Below are positions 8,645 to 38,949 of a stretch of DNA of 64,000 nucleotides, in pieces (position 1 is the stretch's first letter; the number at the start of each line of letters is the position of its first letter). Under the pieces are notes generated by a model that saw nothing but the letters and a program-made list of their open reading frames with translations, did not search any database and was not told where the DNA came from. Source of the stretch: Diacronema lutheri (lineage: Eukaryota; Haptophyta; Pavlovophyceae; Pavlovales; Pavlovaceae); the NCBI GenBank assembly GCA_019448385.1, contig JAGTXO010000043.1:42501-106500 (forward strand), given 5' to 3'. Position numbers and translations under genes: made by a program.

Positions 8645-11600
8645 ATGGCGCGCGAGTCGGCGCTCGCGCAGCTCGACGAGTACCTCGCGTCGGCCGCGGG
8701 CTTTGTTGCGCAGCGGCCGGCTCCCACTGCCAGTGCGCGTGCGACCGCACGCCCGCCCGCGGCGCATCCGCAGAGGACCGTCGCGCGCGGCGTCGACAGG
8801 GCGCGCGAGGCATATCCGGCGGCGACGGCCCGGCGGTGCGCGTGCGCGTGCGCGTGGGCGAGCGCGAGCGCGAGCGCGAGCCGGGAGCCTAGCGCCGGGC
8901 TATTTGGCTCTGCCATGCGCGGCACGCAGCGCGAGAGCTGTAGGACCGAGCAGCACGCGCATGCGCGCACGGCCACGGTGTGGGGCATGGCGCCACCCGA
9001 GGGCGCGGTCACAAGCTGCGCGCTCGCGCGCACGCCATCGTGTGCTGATTCACCCGGCGCCAAGCTCGATCTGCTCATCGATCGCAAGCTGCGCCGCCTC
9101 TCCGGTCAGCGACAGCCGCCGTCGCCGGCCAGCGCTGCGTCGAGCGCGCGCGAGTTTGGCGAGCGCGCACTCGCGGACGCCGCGCTGCAGCTTCTTCCTC
9201 CGCCTCGCGAGGACGCGCACGGCGAGAGGCCGCCGACGCCAGACAGGCTACCAGCCCGCTACACGGCTGCGATCCGCCCCTCTGCTTCCGAGGCGCCGGC
9301 ACACTCCGGTGCGCACCCTCGCGCGGCAGCGCCCCATGCGCTCGGCTGTGTGGGCGCGCGCGCCGCACATCCCGTCGCGCTGCACGCGCCGCCGGGCCCG
9401 CGTGCGGCAGTCGACGGCGTGCACGCGCACCGCATTCCTCTGCGAGCGTCACCGCCGTCGCCAGAGCCGCAAGCCAGCATGGCGCCGCTCGGCGGTGCGT
9501 ACGCGCATGGCGGCCGGTGTGGGCCATCGTGCGGTGCGGGCGGGGGCGAGCATGGCGGCGCGGCTGCGCCTTGGCGCGGCGATGGCGGCGGAGCGCCCCA
9601 GTCCGGCGTCGAGCGGGCGCCGTTGGCCGATGCCTTAGCGCACCGTGCTTCCGAGCGTGCGCGGGAAGAGCCGCGCACCCCGCACGGCGCGCCTTCGGCC
9701 CCGCGCGGCACTGAGCCGCCGTCGCCGAGCGCCCTGCCGCGGCCGCGCAGCCTGTCGCGCGGCCGCGCGCGCGCGCGCGTTTCTGACGCAGCCGCGAGCG
9801 GCGTTGGGAGCGGGAGCGAGCAGGCCGACGCCGCGCCCTTCAGCTTGCACGCCGCTGCCGCATTGCCCGTGTCGTGCTGTGCGCAGCCCACCGGCGGCAT
9901 CGCCACGCGCTGGGCGTGCGCTCCGCCGCCGAGCGGCGCGGCCGACGCTTCGCGCCCCGCCGCGCCAGCCGCCGCGCGCGCACCTGCCGGCGTATGGGTG
10001 CCGCGCGTGGCGTGCGCGTGGTTGGATGCGCCGCGCGTGTGCTGGCCCGCGCCCGCGGCGGGTTGCGCGCTCGCCGGCGCCGCGCACACGAGCGGTGCTG
10101 CCGCGACCGACATGCTGACCACCGTGCTGACCATTGCAAGTCTCGGCGCTACCGTCCGCGAATCGACCGACCGCGGGCCGAGCCACGCGCCAGCCGCCGC
10201 GCCTCACGCGTGCTCGGCCGCGTGCGCGAGCTGTTTCGTCAACCGCGACCATCCTCGCGCGCCACAGCCGCTTCGGACGCACGCCGGCGCGCACTTAGCG
10301 ACTGCGAGTGGTGTTGAGGCGATCGACGCGCCGGCGCCGTGCATTGCGCCCGCTGCGTGTGCGCCACACGCGCAGTGCGGACGCGCCGCGCACGCTGTGG
10401 CGCACAAGGAGACGGCGCCATTCCCGCACCCTGTGGCGCACACGGAGACGGCGCCATTCCCGCACCCTGCGGCGCACACAGAGACGGCGCCATTCCCGCA
10501 CCCTGTGGCGCACACGGAGACGGCGCCATTCCCGCACCCTGCGGCGCACACGGAGACGGCGCCATTCCCGCACCCTGTGGCGCACACGGAGACGGCGCCA
10601 TTCCCGCACCCTGTGGCGCACAAGGAGACGGCGCCATTCCCGCACGTTGCGGCGCACAAGGAGACGGCGCCATTCCCGCACGTTGCGGCGCACACAGAGA
10701 CGGCGCCATTCCCGCACGTTGCGGCGCACACGGAGACGGCGCCATTCCCGCGCGAGATGGCGACGAGCCGAGCGCTCGCCGGGCCGTGCGCTGGCTGGAC
10801 GAGCGTGGTCGCACCCGCGGGCGCGGCCTTGCGCGCTGCGCTCGCGAGCACCGCGGCGTGTGCGCATTTTGTCGAGCCGCGCGAGCCTGCCGTGGGTACA
10901 GATGCGCGCGCCGACGCGCCATGCGGTGAGGGCGAGGGCGCGTGCGGCTTGCGCGAGGCGCTCAGCCAAGCGGCGGGTGTTGGTTTGGCGCGCGATTTGC
11001 TTAGCGCTGCTGCGTTCGCGCCCGCGCACATGCGACTGGCGCTTGAGTTTGGGCGCGACGAGCATGGGTCGGAGGCGCCTCAGCAAGTGGCGCAGCACCC
11101 CTCGCCACAGCCGGCGCAGCAAGTGGCGCAGCACCCCTCGCCACAGCCGGCGCAGCAAGTGGCGCAGCACCCCTCGCCACAGTCGGCGCAGCAAGTGGCG
11201 CAGCACCCCTCGCCACAGCCGGCGCAGCAAGTGGCGCAGCACCCCTCGCCACAGCCGGCGCAGCAAGTGGCGCACGCCGCGGCGCGGAGAGCGGCGCGGC
11301 GCGCAAGCTCGCCAGCGAGCGCGGCGGCGGAGGCGGCAGCGGCGCGCTCTGCCCCGGCCGTACAGCCGGCTGACGGCGTGTACTGGCCGTGGCCGTGGCG
11401 CGCGCACGTCCAGCCTGCCGAGGCCTTTTCGCCGCCATGTGCGACATATTTATCCTCGCACGCGCCGCCGCCGCTGCCGCCGCCGCCGCTGCCGCCGCCG
11501 CCGCCGCCGTCGTGCGTCGCCCACCCTCTTGCCGGCGCGCAATGCGCGGCCCCAGAGTGCGCTGCGCACGGCGCTCCAGCGCACGCGTGCGGCCGCGACG

Positions 11601-30151: not shown

Positions 30152-32122
30152 TCACATCAGCACTTCACACGCCCGTCGACGAGATTTGCGCGCGCGGCCT
30201 CGGCCCGCGGCCTGGTCGCGCGCGCGCCGCGCCGCGCCGAGCGTCGCGCAGCCGGAGGCGCGGTTCGACCGCCCATCCGCCTCTGTCCGTTTTTCACGCG
30301 CCTCTGCTCTCAGACCGCCTGCTCCGCGCGCGCGGCGAGCGCGCGGGGCGAGGGGCGCGAGCGTGGACGCGCGAGTGAGCCGTGTCCGGACGTGTCCGGG
30401 CCCCGCCCCGCGCGTGGACACGGGACATGGCGGTGCACGCACCTTGCTCGCCGCTCTGTACGCGCCACTCAGCGAGATGGCCGGCCGCTGCACAAAGGGG
30501 CCCGCGCGCTCGACAAGCGGCGCCGCGCCGCGCGCCGCGCCCGCGCCTGCTGCGCCCGCCCTGCCGGCGGAGGCGGCAGCGACGCGCAGCCGCTTCGCCG
30601 CGGGCATGCGCGCGGCCTCGGGCCCCCTGAGCGCTCGCCGCCCGTTGCCGGCGGCGGTGGTGGCGGTGGCGATGGCGGCCGTGCGCTTGGGCGCGCGGCG
30701 TGCGAGCAGCGTGTCCTCCCCGCCCGCCATGAAGCGAATCACGCCTCGCACCAGGTCAAAGCGCGCCTCGATGCCGTGCGTGCTGAGCGCGAGCAGCGCC
30801 TCCGCGCCAGCGCCACCCGCCGCGCCATCCGCGGCCGCCGCCGCACGGCGCGTGGCGGCGGCGCGCGGCGCGGCGGAACGTTGCAAGAAGACGGGCGCGG
30901 GCGCGCGCGTGCCGTCTGCGCGCGGCGCTTGGGCCACCAGCCGATTGACGCCAAGCGGCGGCGGCGGCGTGGCGGTGAATTCGCAAACGCGAGCTGCCCA
31001 GCTCGCGACGGCCGTTTCATCGTCAGCCTCGGCAGCTTCGTCCTCCATCTTGGCGCCGAGGGCGCTCGCCGTCTCGCCGTCGGTGTCGTCGGCGGGCGGC
31101 GGGCGCAGCGTCATGCGCAGCGTGCCGCCCGTGCCCTCGTACCTGCGGAGATTCGTCACACAAGGAAGAAGAGGGGGGAAAGGAGGAGGGGAAGGGGCGG
31201 GAAAGGAAGAAGAGGGGGAAAAGGAGGAGGGGAAGGGGCGGGAAAGGAAGAAGAGGGGGGAAAGGAGGAGGGGAAGGGGCGGGAAAGGAAGAAGAGGGGG
31301 AAAAGGAGGAGGGGAAGGGGCGGGAAAGGAAGAAGAGGGGGAAAAGGAGGAGGGGAAGGGGCGGGAAAGGAAGAAGAGGGGGAAAAGGAGGAGGGGAATG
31401 GGCGGGAAAGGAAGAAGAGGGGGAAAAGGAGGAGGGGAAGGGGCGGGAAAGGAAGAAGAGGGGAAAAGGAGGAGGGGAAGGGGCGGGAAAGGGGCAGGCG
31501 CGTCAGCGCGTGGGACGCGCGCGGTGGCACATGGCGGGGGCGGTGGCGAGGTGACGCGACGGCGCGAGGCGCGCACGCTTGCTCGATGACGAAACAGTCA
31601 TCCTCGTCGAGCAGCGCGCGTGCATTCGCCTCGTAGCACAGCTCGTTGCAGCTGCCGCTCCGCACGCGGCTGGCAAAGGAAGGAAGGAAGGAAGGAAGGG
31701 TGGGCGGGTGGGTACGGGAGGGAAGGGGGAAGGGGAAGGGAGAAGAGGGAAGAGGGAAGAGAAGAGGGAAGAGGGAAAAGGGAAAAGGGGGGGGGGGTAG
31801 GGCGCGCGATGAGGCGGCGCCGCACGCGGCGCCACACGCGGCGCGAGCAGGCGCGCAGGCGCGCGGCGCTCAGGCAGAGGGCGAGCAGCAGCTGGCCTGC
31901 CCCGCGCAGAGCAGCGCGCCGTGCGGTCGTGCGGCGCGCGGCCGCATGCCAGCGGGCGACGGCGCGGGGCGCGGCGCGGCGCACGTCCGCTCGTAGGCAA
32001 AGAGCGACACGAGAGGGTCGACGTCGGTCGAGTCGGCATCGAGGAGGGCGTGAAGCTGTTTGCCCATCTGCACGAGCAGCTTGTGCAGTGTAAAGAGAAT
32101 GTATGACGAGGTGCCTACACAG

Positions 32123-32153
<31 letters not shown>

Positions 32154-34924
32154 TGGGTCAAGTTCGAGGCAGGCAACGCAGAGGGGCAGGCGAAACGCAG
32201 CTGCGGGGAGAGGCAAGACCCGCGACGGAGCCGGGGGGAAGGCAACGCAGAGGGGAAGGCAACGCAGAGGGGAAGGCAACGCAGAGGGGAAGGCAAGACC
32301 CGCGACGGAGCCGGGCGAGGAGCGCGCGCCGCCCATCGCCCGCGCCGTGCACGCAGCCCCCCCCCCCCCCCCCCCCTCCCCCCCGCCCCCCCCCCCCCCC
32401 CCCTTCCCCCGCAACTGCCGCGCGCACCCAGCTCGCGTCGGAGTGTGTCCTCGTAGATGGCAGGGTCGAGCCGCCCCTCGACCGCGAGCTGCAGCGCGTG
32501 CAAGAAGATGCCGAAGGCGCCCGGCGCGAGCGCCGCGGCCGCGACGGGGTCCACCTCCGTCACGGCCGCCTTCTCCTTGTCGCCGTTCGCAGCTGCGCCC
32601 GCCGTCGCCGGCTCAGCGCTCGTCGGCGTGGGCGCGCGCGCCGCGGCGGCGGCGGGCGCGGCGGGCGCGGCGGCGGCGACGGCGGCGGCGGCGGCGTCGC
32701 CGGCTGCTGCGGCGGCGGCTGCGCTGCCGCCGGCCTTGCGCTTGCGCGCCTCCTTGGCCGCATCGGCAAGGTCTGCCATTTGGCGCGCAAAGGCGACCCG
32801 CTCGGAGAGCAGGTGGTAGAGGCGTGCGAAGATGTAGTGACGTGAGCTGCCGAGGAAGAGAACGGATGACGCCTGCGCGAGAGAGGGGAGAAGTTGGGAG
32901 GGAAGGGGGAGATTGCGGTGCGCCACGCGGCTCAAAGCTGCGGCGCGCAGAGCCGCGCAGCGCATGGCGCAGTGGTGCAGTGCGGGGTGGAATGCACCGT
33001 GGGGCTGTGCGGTGTACGGTGCGATGCATGGCGCAGTGGTGCAGTGCGGGGTGGAATGCACCGTGGGGCTGTGCGGTGTACGGTGCGATGCATGGCGCAG
33101 TGGTGCAGTGCGGGGTGGAATGCACCGTGGGGCTGTGCGGTGTACGGTGCGGTGCATGGCGCAGTGGTGCAGTGCGGGGTGGAATGCACCGTGGGGCTGT
33201 GCGGTGTACGGTGCGATGCATGGCGCAGTGGTGCAGTGCGGGGTGGAATGCACCGTGGGGCTGTGCGGTGTACGGTGCGATGCATGGCGCAGTGGTGCAG
33301 TGCGGGGTGGAATGCACCGTGGGGCTGTGCGGTGTACGGTGCGATGCATGGCGCAGTGGTGCAGTGCGGGGTGGAATGCACCGTGGGGCTGTGCGGTGTA
33401 CGGTGCGATGCATGGCGCAGTGGTGCAGTGCGGGGTGGAATGCACCGTGGGGCTGTGCGGTGTACGGTGCGATGCATGGCGCAGTGGTGCAGTGCGGGGT
33501 GGAATGCACCGTGGGGCTGTGCGGTGTACGGTGCGGTGCATGGCGCAGTGGTGCAGTGCGGGGTGGAATGCACCGTGGGGCTGTGCGGTGTACGGTGCGA
33601 TGCATGGCGCAGTGGTGCAGTGCGGGGTGGAATGCACCGTGGGGCTGTGCGGTGTACGGTGCGATGCATGGCGCAGTGGTGCAGTGCGGGGTGGAATGCA
33701 CCGTGGGGCTGTGCGGTGTACGGTGCGATGCATGGCGCAGTGGTGCAGTGCGGGGTGGAATGCACCGTGGGGCTGTGCGGTGTACGGTGCGATGCATGGC
33801 GCAGTGGTGCAGTGCGGGGTGGAATGCACCGTGGGGCTGTGCGGTGTACGGTGCGATGCATGGCGCAGTGGTGCAGTGCGGGGTGGAATGCACCGTGGGG
33901 CTGTGCGGTGTACGGTGCGGTGCATGGCGCAGTGGTGCAGTGCGGGGTGGAATGCACCGTGGGGCTGTGCGGTGTACGGTGCGATGCATGGCGCAGTGGT
34001 GCAGTGCGGGGTGGAATGCACCGTGGGGCTGTGCGGTGTACGGTGCGATGCATGGCGCAGTGGTGCAGTGCGGGGTGGAATGCACCGTGGGGCTGTGCGG
34101 TGTACGGTGCGATGCATGGCGCAGTGGTGCAGTGCGGGGTGGAATGCACCGTGGGGCTGTGCGGTGTACGGTGCGATGCATGGCGCAGTGGTGCAGTGCG
34201 GGGTGGAATGCACCGTGGGGCTGTGCGGTGTACGGTGCGATGCATGGCGCCATGCGCTTGCCTTGGGGGCACTCATCGACGGCAGGTTGAAACTGTCGAC
34301 CAGCATGGCGCCCTCGCCCTTGCCGCCCCCGGGCAGCGGCAGCGAGACGTACTGCGGCTTGAGCGTCTGCAGCGGCTTGGTGCGCGGCGCGCTGTCGACC
34401 GCCATGCCGCCCGCCATGCCGGCCGCCATGCCGCCCGAGCGGCCCGCCGCGTCGCCCGCGCCGTCGACGGGCGCGCCGCCGGGGAGGAGGGGCGCGGGCT
34501 CGCCTTTGTCGAAGGTGAGAGCGCCGCCGCCCTGCGTGAAGAGCGGGCGTACGAGCTTGTCCCACAGCAGCGCGAGCCGCTCCTCGAGCTCGTTGGCCTG
34601 CGCGGCAGGGAATTATATATTGGGTAAGGGGGGGAGGGGGGTGGGGGGGGGGGGGCAGGGGATCATATATTGGGTAAGGGGGGGAGGGGGGTGGGGGGAA
34701 GCAGCCGCGGCAGCGCTGACGGGCATCGAGAACTGCGCCTTGCACGCGCAGAGCGCGAGGCGCAAGCACTGCGTGTGCAGCCGTTGCGTGCGCTGAACGT
34801 GCGAGTCGAGGAGGATGGTGCCGTCACGCGCGTTCCCTATCGTCGCGGCCATCAGCACGACGGATGCCAGGTCGGTGCCGTCGCCTGGCGCAGCGTGGCG
34901 TGACATGGATGGGCGGGAAGGGAA

Positions 34925-34962
<38 letters not shown>

Positions 34963-35527
34963 CGTCAAGGCAGGCCGCGCGCGCCTCGCTGGCTGCGGGA
35001 GCTTCGCACGCGACCCGCAGCCGGGGGGGGGGGGGGGGGGGGGGGTTGGGGGCGGGGGGGCGTCGGGTGGGCGGGTGAATGCAAAGAGGCGGGGAGCGGC
35101 CACGGCGATGGCGCGCACCCTTGCCCGCCTTAATCACCGCCTCGGCCGCCTCGCGCGCGGCGGCCTCCGCCTCCGTGCTCATCTCGCGCGCCATGGCCGC
35201 CCCGCCCTGCCCGTCGCCGTCGCCTGCGCCGCGCAACTCCATCGTGAGCTGCTTGCCGGAGAGGTGGCGCTTGTCCGCGTGCTTGAAGAAGAAGGAGCGG
35301 TGGTCGAGCGCGCGCGCCTGGTTCTTGTCGTAGATCTCGACCCATGTGCGCGCAAGGCCAGGCATCACGTCGTCCCACTCGCGCACCTGCACACACGGGT
35401 TTTGGGTGGGGGTTTTGGAAGGGGGGGGGGGGGGGAAGTTGGGTTGGGATTGGGCGGGTGGCGGGTGGGCGGGAAAAGGCGCGAGTGGCCGCGCGGCGTG
35501 GCGGCGGCGTGGCGGCGGCGTGCAACA

Positions 35528-35559
<32 letters not shown>

Positions 35560-38545
35560 CGTTTGCGCCGCGCGCGCCTTTGCCTCGAGCCTGCGCAGAA
35601 GCAGCGGCGCGGCGACGGCGGGCAGCTTGGCAAGCAGCTCGTGCAGCTCCTTGGTCTGAGGCCCATACAGCTTGCGCACCGCGCGCATGAAGAGACACGG
35701 CATCGGAGGCAAGCGAAAGGCGCGACGCTCCGCCTCCGTCGCCGCCGCGCCGAGCTGCGCGCAGTGCGGCTGCAGCCACGCGACGGCGCGCCGCGCGAGG
35801 TGCAGCGTTGTGTCCAGCTCGTGCCGCTCGTCCTGCGTGCATCGAGGGGAGGGGGGGGGGGGGGGGGGCGGCAGTCCGGATGGGGAAGGGGGGGGGGCAG
35901 TCCGGATGGGGGGGCAGGGGGGTCAGGTGGAGGGGCCGCGGTACGATGCACTCACGCGGCGCGCTGCCAGCCGCGAGGGGAGAAGAGGGGCGACACGACG
36001 GCTTTTGCGCGGCATCGGGCGCGGCATCGGCGCACCTCCGCACGAAAGATCGCCTCCTCATGCTGATTGCGCCGCATCGCCTTGAACGGGTTGTCCTCCG
36101 CGCCCGTAGGCGTCGAGACGAAGCTATCGTTGAGCACGGACGCCTCGAGGGGCGAGCGGTACGTAAAGGTGACGCCGCCCGGCCGCCAGTCGGGCGGGCA
36201 CTTGAGGTAGGACGCGCCGTACTGCACCCACTTGGAGGTGTCGCCTCGGAATGCAGCGCGCTCCTGCGTGAAGGCGTTGCGCGCGGCGGCGGACGGCGGC
36301 TCCTGCACGCTGCGGCTGCGCCCAAGGAGGACGCACATCTTTGCGTGCAGGTCTGCACCGGGCGTGCCAAAAAGGTTGATTGTGAGCTCGATCAGCTCGT
36401 CGGCATCGAGCACGTGCAAAATGTACAGCTCGAGGCATTTTGCGAGCTCCTGATAGCTTTGCGCGCGCAGCCGGCCCTTGCACTGCGTGAAGAGCTCGGC
36501 GCCGCCCGCGAGCGGCCGGTGCGCGCGCTCGCCCGGCCGCAGCCCGAGGATCCCGCCCACGCCCATGCCCCATGGGTCGCTCGCACCGCCCGCGCCGCCC
36601 GCGCCGCCGCGCCGCGCGCCGGCGCCCGCGCCGAGCTTGCGCTTGTGCGAGGGGGGCGCGCCTCCGGACGCGAGCACGTTCGTGCCGAGGGGTCCAAGCG
36701 CTGAGCAGCCACACGGACCGCCCGCGCAGCCAGCCGGACCGCCCGCCAACATGGAGCCGTACGGGCCGCCGCCCATAGCGCCGCGCACGGCGCCGCGGTG
36801 CGCGCCCGCCGGACCGCCGCCGTACCCGCCCGCGCCCACCATCCCCGGACCAATGCGGCCGTAACCGTCCTTCGCCCCGCCAAACTGGCCGCAGCCCGCG
36901 CAGCCCGCGCCCACGCAGCCCGCGCCCGGCTGCAGCTTGACGTGGTGCTGCGGCGGAGGCGAGCCGTCGGGCAGGAACTGCGCAAACTCGGAGAGCAGGT
37001 CGGCGTGGTGGCGAAAGAGGATCGACACTTGCTCGTACACGTCCTTGATCGCGCTGGACACACGCCGCACGCACGGCAGGCGTGCGCGGCGCGGGCGCGC
37101 GCAGCTTGAGCGGCGCGCGCGCACCGACGCCGCCGCCGCAGAGCGCGGGCGAGCGCTGTGCAACGACGCGCCTCGTCGCACAGCGGCCGCGCGTCACGCG
37201 ACCGCGCCCGCCGCGTGACGCGCCAGTCCCGCCGCCCGCCGCCCGCCGCCCGCCGCCTGTGCCCTGTGCGCGCGCGCGCGCGCACGCCGCGCACCGCTGC
37301 TCCTTCTGGTAGGTGTGCAAGATGTCGAGGAACTGCTTGTACGTCTCGGGCTGCTTGGAGAAGCGTAGCTTGATCTTGGTCACGTAGTTGATCGCCTGGT
37401 CGAACTCGATCTGCTTCTTGGCCGGCGCGCCGAATGCGTTGGCGCCGGCGGCGCCGCACGGGCCGCCGCCGCAGCCGCCGCCGCCACCCGGCCCGCCGCG
37501 CGCCATCGCACCACCCATTGTGCCGCACCCACCCATCGCGCCGCCGCCGCCGCCGCCGCCGTACGCGCCGCCGCCGCCGCCCGCGTGCGCCATCCCACCG
37601 CCGCCGCACTCGAGCATCCCGCCCGCGCCGCCCGTGCCGCCCGCGCCCGCCCACTGGGCGGGCCCGCCAGCAGCCGCGTAGTGCAGCGGCACGCCCCCGC
37701 TCCCTTGGCCTGCGACGTACGCGTGCGGCGGTCCGGCGGGCTGTCCGGGCGCGCTGGGCTGCGGCGTGTGCTGCACGTACATCTCGTTGTTGACAAAGTC
37801 GATGTTGTACCCCGGCGGGAGGAAGGTGTTGAAGCCAAGGATGAGTTCGCGCGAGCCGTGGAAGAGGTGCGAGACGCGCTCGATCACGCCCGGCGTATCA
37901 ATCGTGTGCGCCTTGAACTCCTTCATGATGTCGAGGAACTGGTTGTACACGTGCGGCTGCGACTCAAACTTGGTCTTGACCAGGTCGAGGTAGAGCAGCG
38001 CGTCCTCCACGCGCAGCTGCTTGCCGCCCGGCGGCGCGCCGCCGCCGGCGGGCGCGGGCGGCGCCGCGGGCGGCGGCGGCGGCGGCGGCAGCTGCCCTCC
38101 GCACGCGCCGGGCGCGAGCGCGCCGGCTGGCGGCGGCGCGCCGCCGCACGCGCCGCCGCTACAGCCCGCGCCACCCGCGCCGCCACCCGCGCCGCAGCCC
38201 GCGCCCACTGCGCCGTCCGCGCGGCCGCCCGCGCACGGAGGCGGCGGCTGCTGCGGCGCATAGGGCGTGGACGGGGGCAGTCGGCCGTCGGGTGCACCGC
38301 CGTGCGGTCCGGGCGCGCCGTCGGCGGGCGTCGGATGGTACGGCACGGGCGCGACCATGCGCGCCGAGCTGCCGCCCGCCGGGAGCACGCCGTGCACCTC
38401 GCCCGTGTGTTTGAGCTCGTCGTGCACGTATTCGCCGCCGGATGCGCCGCGCGCCCCGGCCAGCACGCCGCCGTCGCCGGTCGGCGGCGGCGCCATCACG
38501 ACATCCGTGTCGCACGCCGTCGGCATCACGCTCGCCGCGCCGAGC

Positions 38546-38585
<40 letters not shown>

Positions 38586-38949
38586 ACGCCGGCGCATACT
38601 CCACGCGCGCAGGCGGCGCGCAAGCGCCGGCGGCCGGCGCGAGCGCGCTGTCGCGCGCGCCAAAGGCCGCGGGTGCGGGCGGCGCGCCGGCGCCGAACTC
38701 TCTCTTTACAATGCCCGCGCTTGCCTCGCCGCCGCCCGCCGCGCCGCCACGCGCGACCTCGTCGGGCGCGCCGCGCCAGCACGGCACCCCGCCAGTTGAT
38801 GCCGCCTCGCGCGTCTCGCCTGCGGGCTGGTGATGCGGTCCGACGGCGGCTGGCGTGGCGGTGTGCGCGTCGCCATGCCCGTACGGCTCGGCCAGCTCGC
38901 CCTTCACGCCGCGCGGCTCGGGAGCGCTCGCCGGGGCTCCCTCAAGCAT
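30152..38949 (-). CDS. SIN3: SIN3 transcriptional co-repressor scaffold
   Basis: Ten exons: 38949-37295, 37053-36036, 35832-35578, 35386-35119, 34884-34721, 34597-34262, 32872-32428, 32114-31985, 31669-31577, 31142-30152; 1784 residues. PAH1 (about 308-375: VEDALLYLDLVKTKFESQP), PAH2 (about 512-582, split by intron 1: FLDILHTYQKEQRAIKDVYE) and a PAH3-like helix set (about 735-785) precede the HDAC-interaction domain (YGASYLKCPPDW, NQHEEAIFRAEDERHELD, KLYGPQ). WVEIYDKNQARALDHRSFFFK, LEERLALLWDKLVRPLF and the Sin3 C-terminal domain (YHLLSERVAFARQM, YEDTLRRELGTSSYILFTLHKLL) follow. Sin3 bridges DNA-binding factors and HDACs in the nucleus. Introns 3 and 6 are GC-AG; most others have GTGCGC donors. 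The introns hold large pyrimidine-rich or 64-bp repeats. Intron 6 could be retained without a frame change. Confidence 0.95.
31161..31497 (-). repeat. About 41-bp purine/pyrimidine minisatellite, SIN3 intron 9
   Basis: Eight imperfect copies of a 40-42 bp unit fill the intron 31143-31576. The plus strand is pure G/A with one C per unit, so the SIN3 transcript reads CCTTTCCCGCCCC-type pyrimidine repeats leading to the 3' splice site. Confidence 0.9.
32122..32403 (-). repeat. Opposed G and C tracts and 16-bp repeats, SIN3 intron 7
   Basis: In the sense of SIN3, intron 7 (32115-32427) begins with a G tract of roughly 45 nt (32357-32403, few interruptions). It ends with 26 consecutive C (32122-32147) immediately before TGTGTAG. 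Between them are four copies of a GGCAACGCAGAGGGGAA-type unit near 32170-32300. The tracts are complementary. Confidence 0.9.
32964..34250 (-). repeat. 64-bp satellite, 20 copies, SIN3 intron 6
   Basis: Exactly 20 full units of 64 bp run from 32964 to 34243, followed by the first bases of another. Units are nearly identical. Position 61 is A in most but G in units 3, 9 and 15, that is every 384 bp. No stop codon occurs in the SIN3 reading frame or in several other frames. The array fills nearly all of the 1389-bp intron 32873-34261. Confidence 0.95.
34611..34700 (-). repeat. Tandem C-rich duplication, SIN3 intron 5
   Basis: Two copies about 50 bp apart of a unit containing TATATTGGGTAAGG and a G tract (C tract in the transcript) make up most of intron 5 (34598-34720). 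Confidence 0.85.
34925..35046 (-). repeat. Long G homopolymers (C in transcript), SIN3 intron 4
   Basis: Runs of about 38 G (from 34925) and about 22 G (35024-35046) on the plus strand lie inside intron 4 (34885-35118). They give long C tracts upstream of the 3' splice site in the transcript. Confidence 0.85.
35418..35555 (-). repeat. G run and GT microsatellite, SIN3 intron 3
   Basis: A run of about 17 G (35418-35434) and a GT dinucleotide run (about 35528-35552) lie in intron 3 (35387-35577). A further G-rich block at 35848-35900 occupies intron 2. Confidence 0.85.

What the first reader, a model, noticed from the sequence alone, without database searches (positions are those of the whole stretch)
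32873..34261. Stop-free, in-phase 64-bp satellite forming a retainable SIN3 intron (exitron-like) with a 6-unit higher-order repeat
The block between conserved SIN3 exons 6 and 7 is 1389 bp (463 codons) and has weak GC-AG borders (AAG|GCAAGC ... GCGCAG). It consists almost wholly of 20 copies of a 64-bp unit. The SIN3 frame passes through it without a stop. Retention would insert a His/Thr/Pro/Ala-rich domain of 463 residues with a 64-residue period, because 64 is not a multiple of 3. The A-to-G variant at unit position 61 recurs in units 3, 9 and 15, so the array last expanded in 384-bp blocks. A selfish satellite tolerated inside a chromatin-regulator gene, or a switchable protein domain, would both be notable.
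Basis: partly seen in the sequence, partly recalled or inferred. Interest (0 to 1): 0.82.

Follow-up and report, generated by a model that had tools for sequence, protein, structure and literature searches.

The report
Ordinary minisatellite inside a SIN3 intron
A 64-base sequence has been copied about 20 times inside what looks like one intron of a SIN3-like gene of a GC-rich alga; it lacks stop codons because of its base composition, not because it looks like protein code, so it is most likely ordinary repeat growth in an intron that is normally removed.

Summary
The sequence facts are mostly right. Window 32962-34250 is a 64-bp x 20.1 array filling a 1389-bp, phase-0 GC-AG intron of a minus-strand SIN3 gene, with no stop in the SIN3 frame. 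Contig count and lengths match Diacronema lutheri NIVA-4/92 (haptophyte, 73% GC).

The unusual reading does not hold up. The unit is stop-free in all six frames, but so are 93% of its dinucleotide shuffles on the sense strand. Counting this one, 10 of 11 tandem arrays in 274 kb have stop-free units and 5 of 9 SIN3 introns are open in frame. Codon usage is intron-like in all three frames (-0.30 to -0.37 bits/codon; all ten exons score positive). The donor has the best U1 match of the nine SIN3 introns. GC donors are the majority in hand-checked Emiliania huxleyi genes. The unit was found nowhere else in the genome, so it is not a dispersed satellite. An RPC1-like gene also has a GC-AG intron largely made of a minisatellite.

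Best reading: an expanded intronic minisatellite, normally spliced out. The 384-bp step is plausible but rests on one variant in three copies. No RNA data were available, so some retention is not excluded.

The parts
32962..34250 (-). 64-bp minisatellite, 20.1 copies, 3 changes in 20 full units; sense strand C-rich (49% C)
   Evidence: TRF; unit-by-unit comparison; composition
32873..34261 (-). SIN3 intron 6, GC-AG, phase 0, 1389 bp (inferred from sequence, no RNA)
   Evidence: Junctions; intron-like codon usage; splice signals
34256..34261 (-). 5' splice site GCAAGC (exon ...AAG|)
32873..32902 (-). 3' splice site with pyrimidine tract
32919..32964 (-). hairpin with 15-bp outer stem between array and pyrimidine tract
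   Evidence: Fold, z -3.38, 0 of 200 shuffles as stable; not unique, intron 1 end z -2.93 in a rougher test
33152..33152 (.). A>G variant, unit 3; also at 33536 (unit 9) and 33920 (unit 15), spaced 384 bp
34262..34597 (-). SIN3 exon 6 (linker; no Pfam match, coding-like codon usage)
32428..32872 (-). SIN3 exon 7; start of PF16879 Sin3a_C
31143..31576 (-). SIN3 intron 9, holds a 41-bp x 8.1 array (31162-31492)
30152..38949 (-). SIN3-like gene model, 10 exons, 9 introns (manual; start codon and some junctions are choices)
   Evidence: PAH, Sin3_corepress, Sin3a_C

Best explanation
A single-locus minisatellite has grown by replication slippage or unequal exchange inside intron 6 of a SIN3 co-repressor gene of Diacronema lutheri. 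It probably began as degenerate short GTGCGGTG-like repeats, then a 64-bp block was amplified, most recently perhaps in 384-bp steps. The spliceosome removes it as a normal GC-AG intron. It is open in all frames because the sense strand is C-rich and poor in T, so stop codons are rare. Shown: array, gene context, splice-site sequences, uniqueness, intron-like coding statistics, and a parallel case in an RPC1-like gene. Inferred: actual splicing and the growth mechanism.
For: Unit stop-free in 92.75% of sense-strand shuffles. 10 of 11 arrays in 274 kb have units open in all six frames; leaving out this array and the C74 one, which were in the sample by choice, 8 of 9. 5 of 9 SIN3 introns have no in-frame stop and 4 of 9 are multiples of three, this one counted in both. 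Codon score -0.30, -0.37, -0.34 in the three frames, versus +0.07 to +0.65 for the 10 exons in frame and -0.68 to +0.13 for the other 8 introns over three frames; sense C-skew -0.43, with 6 of the other 8 introns at -0.38 to -0.73 and exons -0.26 to +0.13. Donor has the best U1 match of 9. 20 of 20 genome hits of a 27-base core lie in this array. The two 32-bp halves of the unit agree at 19 of 32 positions, reached by 0 of 2000 shuffles at that lag. An RPC1-like GC-AG intron of 434 bp (L014:4913-5346) carries a 295-bp array of 8-bp repeats, with RPC1 homology continuing across it. Intron 9 of the same gene holds a 41-bp array. E. huxleyi: GC donors 56-65% in hand-checked sets (PMC4028052, passages).
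Against: No RNA, second strain or deposited gene model was available. Homology does not bracket the array: exon 6 has no Pfam match and the SIN3B structure match (query 8-297 and 618-703 of 739) leaves out the junction. A freshly expanded coding repeat could also lack normal codon usage. Codon score and GC3 do not separate exons from introns perfectly: intron 1 scores +0.13 in one frame, exon 10 only +0.07, and introns 1 and 4 reach GC3 of 0.84 and 0.83. In E. huxleyi the share of GC donors is lower in other sets (39% of ESTs; 15% of JGI models).
Confidence: 0.87

Rival explanations
1. Exitron-like switch: the intron is sometimes retained and adds a 463-residue His/Thr/Pro/Ala-rich linker just before the Sin3a_C domain, altering SIN3 function.
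For: In-frame, stop-free, length 3n. It lies just before the Sin3a_C domain, in a stretch without Pfam match, so an insert may be tolerated. The three variant copies are all synonymous (CAC for CAT, His) in the SIN3 frame and the 384-bp step is divisible by three. Intron retention is frequent in another haptophyte, E. huxleyi, and its authors suggest that non-canonical splicing may contribute (PMC4028052, passages).
Against: Openness expected from composition and present in all three antisense frames too. No Pfam match at E <= 1 for the block's SIN3 frame or for the array in the other two sense frames. Intron-like codon usage. Donor not weak. In E. huxleyi virtually all checked retained introns gave premature stops, function unclear. 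One variant class being synonymous is roughly a 1-in-3 event.
Confidence: 0.05
2. Constitutive coding repeat: there is no intron here; exons 6 and 7 are one exon and SIN3 always carries the 463-residue repeat.
For: One open frame of 1004 codons runs from 34612 through exon 6, the block and exon 7. Homology does not cover exon 6 or the junction.
Against: Good donor, and acceptor with pyrimidine tract. All three frames score as intron while exons 6 and 7 on either side score +0.54 and +0.37. Residue composition is foreign to the rest of the protein: 16% His, 6% Cys, no Asp, Glu or Lys.
Confidence: 0.05
3. Selfish or mobile element: a satellite family or an introner that copied itself into this intron.
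For: High homogeneity of copies.
Against: 20 of 20 unit-core hits (up to 3 mismatches) are at this locus. A 100-bp piece spanning the intron's 3' end has 1 hit, itself. The only DNA hit elsewhere of a 201-base array piece is an 8-bp array at 73% identity. The DNA search skips simple repeats and very common words, so it is not exhaustive.
Confidence: 0.02

Closest known systems
Intronic minisatellites / VNTRs (e.g. TERT intron 6 VNTR6-1, 38-bp unit)
   Same: Tandem array of a unit of tens of bp inside an intron, many copies (PMC11830802, abstract and outline seen).
   Different: No copy-number or splicing data here; host is a haptophyte.
Exitrons (Marquez et al. 2015)
   Same: No stop codons, length 3n, flanked by coding sequence (PMC4484396, passages).
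   Different: No evidence of inclusion in mRNA; [quoted passage not shown] neither is shown here.
GC-AG introns of haptophytes
   Same: GC donor with AG acceptor; majority type in hand-checked E. huxleyi junctions (PMC4028052, passages).
   Different: Here 3 GC-AG among 11 manually placed introns of two genes; SIN3 intron 5 has a possible alternative GC donor.
CeRep25B intronic minisatellite of C. elegans
   Same: Minisatellite lying mostly in introns (PMC4039745, passages).
   Different: CeRep25B occurs in many places in clusters and is enriched near certain alternative exons; this unit is single-locus.

Membership tests
Intronic minisatellite | Head-to-tail copies of a unit of roughly 10-100 bp | tested here: met
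   64 bp x 20.1
Intronic minisatellite | Lies wholly within an intron | tested here: met
   By sequence only: splice signals and codon statistics; no RNA
Intronic minisatellite | Copy number varies between individuals (VNTR) | not testable with these tools
   One assembly only; no relatives held
Exitron | Stop-free and continuing the frame of flanking coding sequence | tested here: met
   but expected from composition
Exitron | Retained in a share of mature mRNA and translated | not testable with these tools
   No RNA or proteome data
Exitron | Coding-like sequence (codon usage) | tested here: not met
   All three frames negative, like most intron frames
Exitron | Weaker splice sites than other introns | tested here: not met
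   Best U1 match among the 9 SIN3 introns
Satellite DNA / introner family | Copies at more than one locus | tested here: not met
   Found once in 43.5 Mb; counts in that tool are lower bounds
SIN3 co-repressor | PAH repeats, Sin3_corepress and Sin3a_C domains in order | tested here: met
   PF02671 8.2e-36, PF08295 2.2e-20, PF16879 7.4e-21 on a manually spliced piece of 1059 residues

The most novel reading that the evidence does not exclude
Array size is filtered by the SIN3 reading frame: because the intron is sometimes retained, only expansions in multiples of three units (such as the 6-unit, 384-bp step) survive, giving SIN3 a tunable, length-variable linker just before its C-terminal domain. 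A related form: each unit carries one acceptor-like CACAG and one donor-like GGTGCAT (20 of each in the array), so splicing could include variable numbers of units.
Probability: 0.04. Interest if true: 0.6.

Novelty: new member of a known kind. Interest (0 to 1): 0.13.

Why it matters
It shows how easily an intron in a 73% GC genome imitates coding sequence: open stretches of hundreds of codons are common here (the longest per frame in this window run from 727 to 2365 codons), so openness alone should not be read as a protein domain or an exitron. The locus might serve as a length marker between strains. If the retained form were real it would be a length-variable linker in a chromatin regulator, but little found here points to that.

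Tried and rejected
Deposited protein model: the search for homologous proteins with residues 880-1490 of a 1528-residue version of my SIN3 model scored 7985 candidates, none at E <= 0.001. Neither the D. lutheri protein nor a relative came up, so the annotators' treatment of the intron is unknown.

Mobile intron or satellite family: not supported.

Functional domain in the translated array: no Pfam family at E <= 1 for the 463-residue block in the SIN3 frame or for 433 and 432 residues in the other two sense frames.

RNA structure: two units fold only slightly better than shuffles (z -1.10, 28 of 200 shuffles as stable); the 5' end z -1.92; the 3' part, with a hairpin almost wholly outside the array, z -3.38. 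A rougher test on the last 100 nt of the nine introns gave z -3.0 for intron 6 and -2.9 for intron 1, so it is not unique.

Period 8 in the unit: lag 8 itself is not significant (0.28 of shuffles reach it), while lags 5 and 32 are. The short-repeat ancestry is an inference from near-matches to GTGCAGTG or GTGCGGTG, for which I ran no control.

Literature: seven paper searches, most with capped lists; among the titles and abstract beginnings listed I saw none on minisatellites in haptophyte nuclear introns or on this SIN3 gene. The genome paper was seen as part 1 of 4 of its text and 12 passages; the words tandem, minisatellite and splice do not occur in its main text.

Full report
Where it is. 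The window is C39:42501-106500 of an assembly of 43,492,796 bases in 103 contigs. Contig lengths 3,042,068 and 852,258 equal the longest contig (3.042 Mb) and the 852.26-kb value of Diacronema lutheri NIVA-4/92, a haptophyte with 73.25% GC and 43,502,671 bp in 103 contigs (PMC8379373, part 1 of its text). The held assembly is 9,875 bases shorter. The identification is by these numbers; the genome itself is unnamed.

The gene. On the minus strand a manual model of 10 exons and 9 introns gives a protein with PAH repeats, Sin3_corepress and Sin3a_C domains and PDB matches to SIN3B and SIN3 (best 2.1e-38). Seven introns are modelled GT-AG; introns 3 (AAG|GCGCGC) and 6 (AAG|GCAAGC) are GC-AG. Intron 5 has a possible alternative GC donor, so the count is 2 or 3 of 9. 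Junctions were placed by eye from frame and signal.

The array. TRF gives 64 bp x 20.1 at 32962-34250. Of 20 full units, 17 are identical and units 3, 9 and 15 share one A>G change. Equal spacing happens in 90 of 1140 placements of three marked units, and equal spacing in a step that is a multiple of three units in 24 of 1140. A shared change in three copies is best explained by block copying, so a 384-bp step is plausible, but it is one variant only.

Is the open frame meaningful? The unit has no stop codon in any of six frames. In 2000 dinucleotide-preserving shuffles of the unit the sense strand is free of stops in all three frames in 92.75%, the antisense in 21.85%, both in 19.9%. Random 64-mers of the rest of the window, made circular, are free in 57-59% per strand, while random 1389-bp pieces are open in a given frame in only 9.2%. 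Because 64 is 1 mod 3, any frame runs through all three phases of the unit, so once the unit is free the whole array is open in every frame. Among 11 arrays (>=150 bp, period >=14, >=85% match) in 274 kb (window plus 21 stretches at arbitrary places), 10 have units open in all six frames; the exception has a 413-bp unit. Two of the 11, this array and the C74 one, were in the sample by choice; without them it is 8 of 9. Among the nine SIN3 introns, 5 have no in-frame stop, 4 have lengths divisible by three, and 2 (introns 4 and 6) have both. For intron 6 the antisense is open in all three frames too, as it is for introns 2, 3 and 7.

Is it coding? With codon frequencies of the SIN3 exons, all ten exons score positive in their own frame when left out of training (+0.07 to +0.65 bits per codon) and negative in the other frames. 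Intron 6 scores -0.30, -0.37 and -0.34; the other introns range from -0.68 to +0.13, intron 1 being the one with a positive frame. GC3 in the SIN3 frame is 0.69 against 0.79-0.96 in the exons, but introns 1 and 4 also reach 0.84 and 0.83. The flanking exons 6 and 7 score +0.54 and +0.37. The block therefore looks like intron, not like exon. Exon 6 has no Pfam match, Sin3a_C starts after the first 7 residues of exon 7, and the PDB match leaves out the junction, so homology alone does not prove the intron.

Are the borders weak? A U1-like gene (C75:819592-819749, 50.6 bits, below the 69.5 gathering score) has a 5' end reading CACUUACCUUUC. Against CAGGTAAGT or AAGGTAAGT the intron 6 donor matches at 6 or 7 of 9 positions; the other eight SIN3 introns match at 3 to 5. 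Of the 27 nt before the terminal CAG, 85% are pyrimidine, third highest of nine. In E. huxleyi GC donors are 56% of 241 hand-mapped junctions, 61% of Cufflinks donors and 65% of inspected read-based ones, but 39% of ESTs and 15% of JGI models, the last of which the authors blame on ab initio prediction (PMC4028052, passages). GC-AG here is ordinary. [quoted passage not shown]

Is it a satellite? The 27-base core with up to 3 mismatches has 20 matches in the genome, all in this array. A 100-bp piece spanning the intron's 3' end has one match, itself. So it behaves as a single-locus minisatellite. A 201-base piece of the array has one hit outside the locus, 73% identity to an 8-bp array on C74. 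That array (295 bp) lies in a 434-bp GC-AG intron of an RPC1-like gene: the exon before matches RPC1 (7a6h_A) up to residue 1283 and the exon after starts at 1286; one further codon and one split codon account for the two residues between. This independent case shows the same anatomy, a GC donor followed within 20 nt by a minisatellite, in an intron whose boundaries homology does fix. SIN3 intron 9 has a 41-bp array as well.

How it probably arose. The two 32-bp halves of the unit agree at 19 of 32 positions (none of 2000 shuffles reached it at that lag; 0.0005 of shuffles reached it at any lag from 2 to 32). Eight places in the unit match GTGCAGTG, and eight match GTGCGGTG, at 6 or more of 8 bases, nine places in all (no control run). 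A short repeat that decayed, and was then amplified as 64-bp and possibly 384-bp blocks, fits; this is inference.

What remains open. RNA and strain data were not available. Two facts would fit frame selection: the variant is synonymous (His) in the SIN3 frame in all three copies, and 384 is divisible by three. Each is about a one-in-three event and they are not independent, since a step divisible by three puts all three copies in one phase. I give retention as a functional switch about 5%.

Noticed in passing
window SIN3 introns 2, 3, 4, 5, 7 (e.g. 34925-34962; 32122-32147): Sense-strand poly-C runs of 13-38 nt, in intron 7 ending 7 nt before the intron end, possibly serving as pyrimidine tract. 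In 210 kb elsewhere there are 41 C/G runs of 15 or more and 4 A/T runs of 10 or more.
   Followed up: partly
L014:4913-5346 (C74): RPC1-like gene with a GC-AG intron two-thirds filled by 8-bp CACTGCAC-like repeats.
   Followed up: yes
window 31162-31492: 41-bp x 8.1 array in SIN3 intron 9.
   Followed up: partly
L045 reverse strand, near 1656 (C75:819592-819749): U1-like snRNA candidate below the Rfam cut-off; its 5' end CACUUACCUUUC would favour AAG|GU donors.
   Followed up: partly
window SIN3 introns: Six of the seven GT donors read GTGCGC, far from GTAAGT.
   Followed up: no
window 32962-34250: Each sense unit carries one CACAG and one GGTGCAT, i.e. acceptor- and donor-like strings 20 times each.
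   Followed up: no
window 10389-10751 and 11081-11274: Two arrays with 36-bp units (a multiple of three), unlike the 41-, 43- and 64-bp arrays; they may be coding repeats.
   Followed up: no
L010, L011 (C75:1081227-1083156) and L013 (C50:241299-241433): Further PAH-domain matches outside this gene, over the Pfam cut-off; perhaps a second SIN3-like gene.
   Followed up: no
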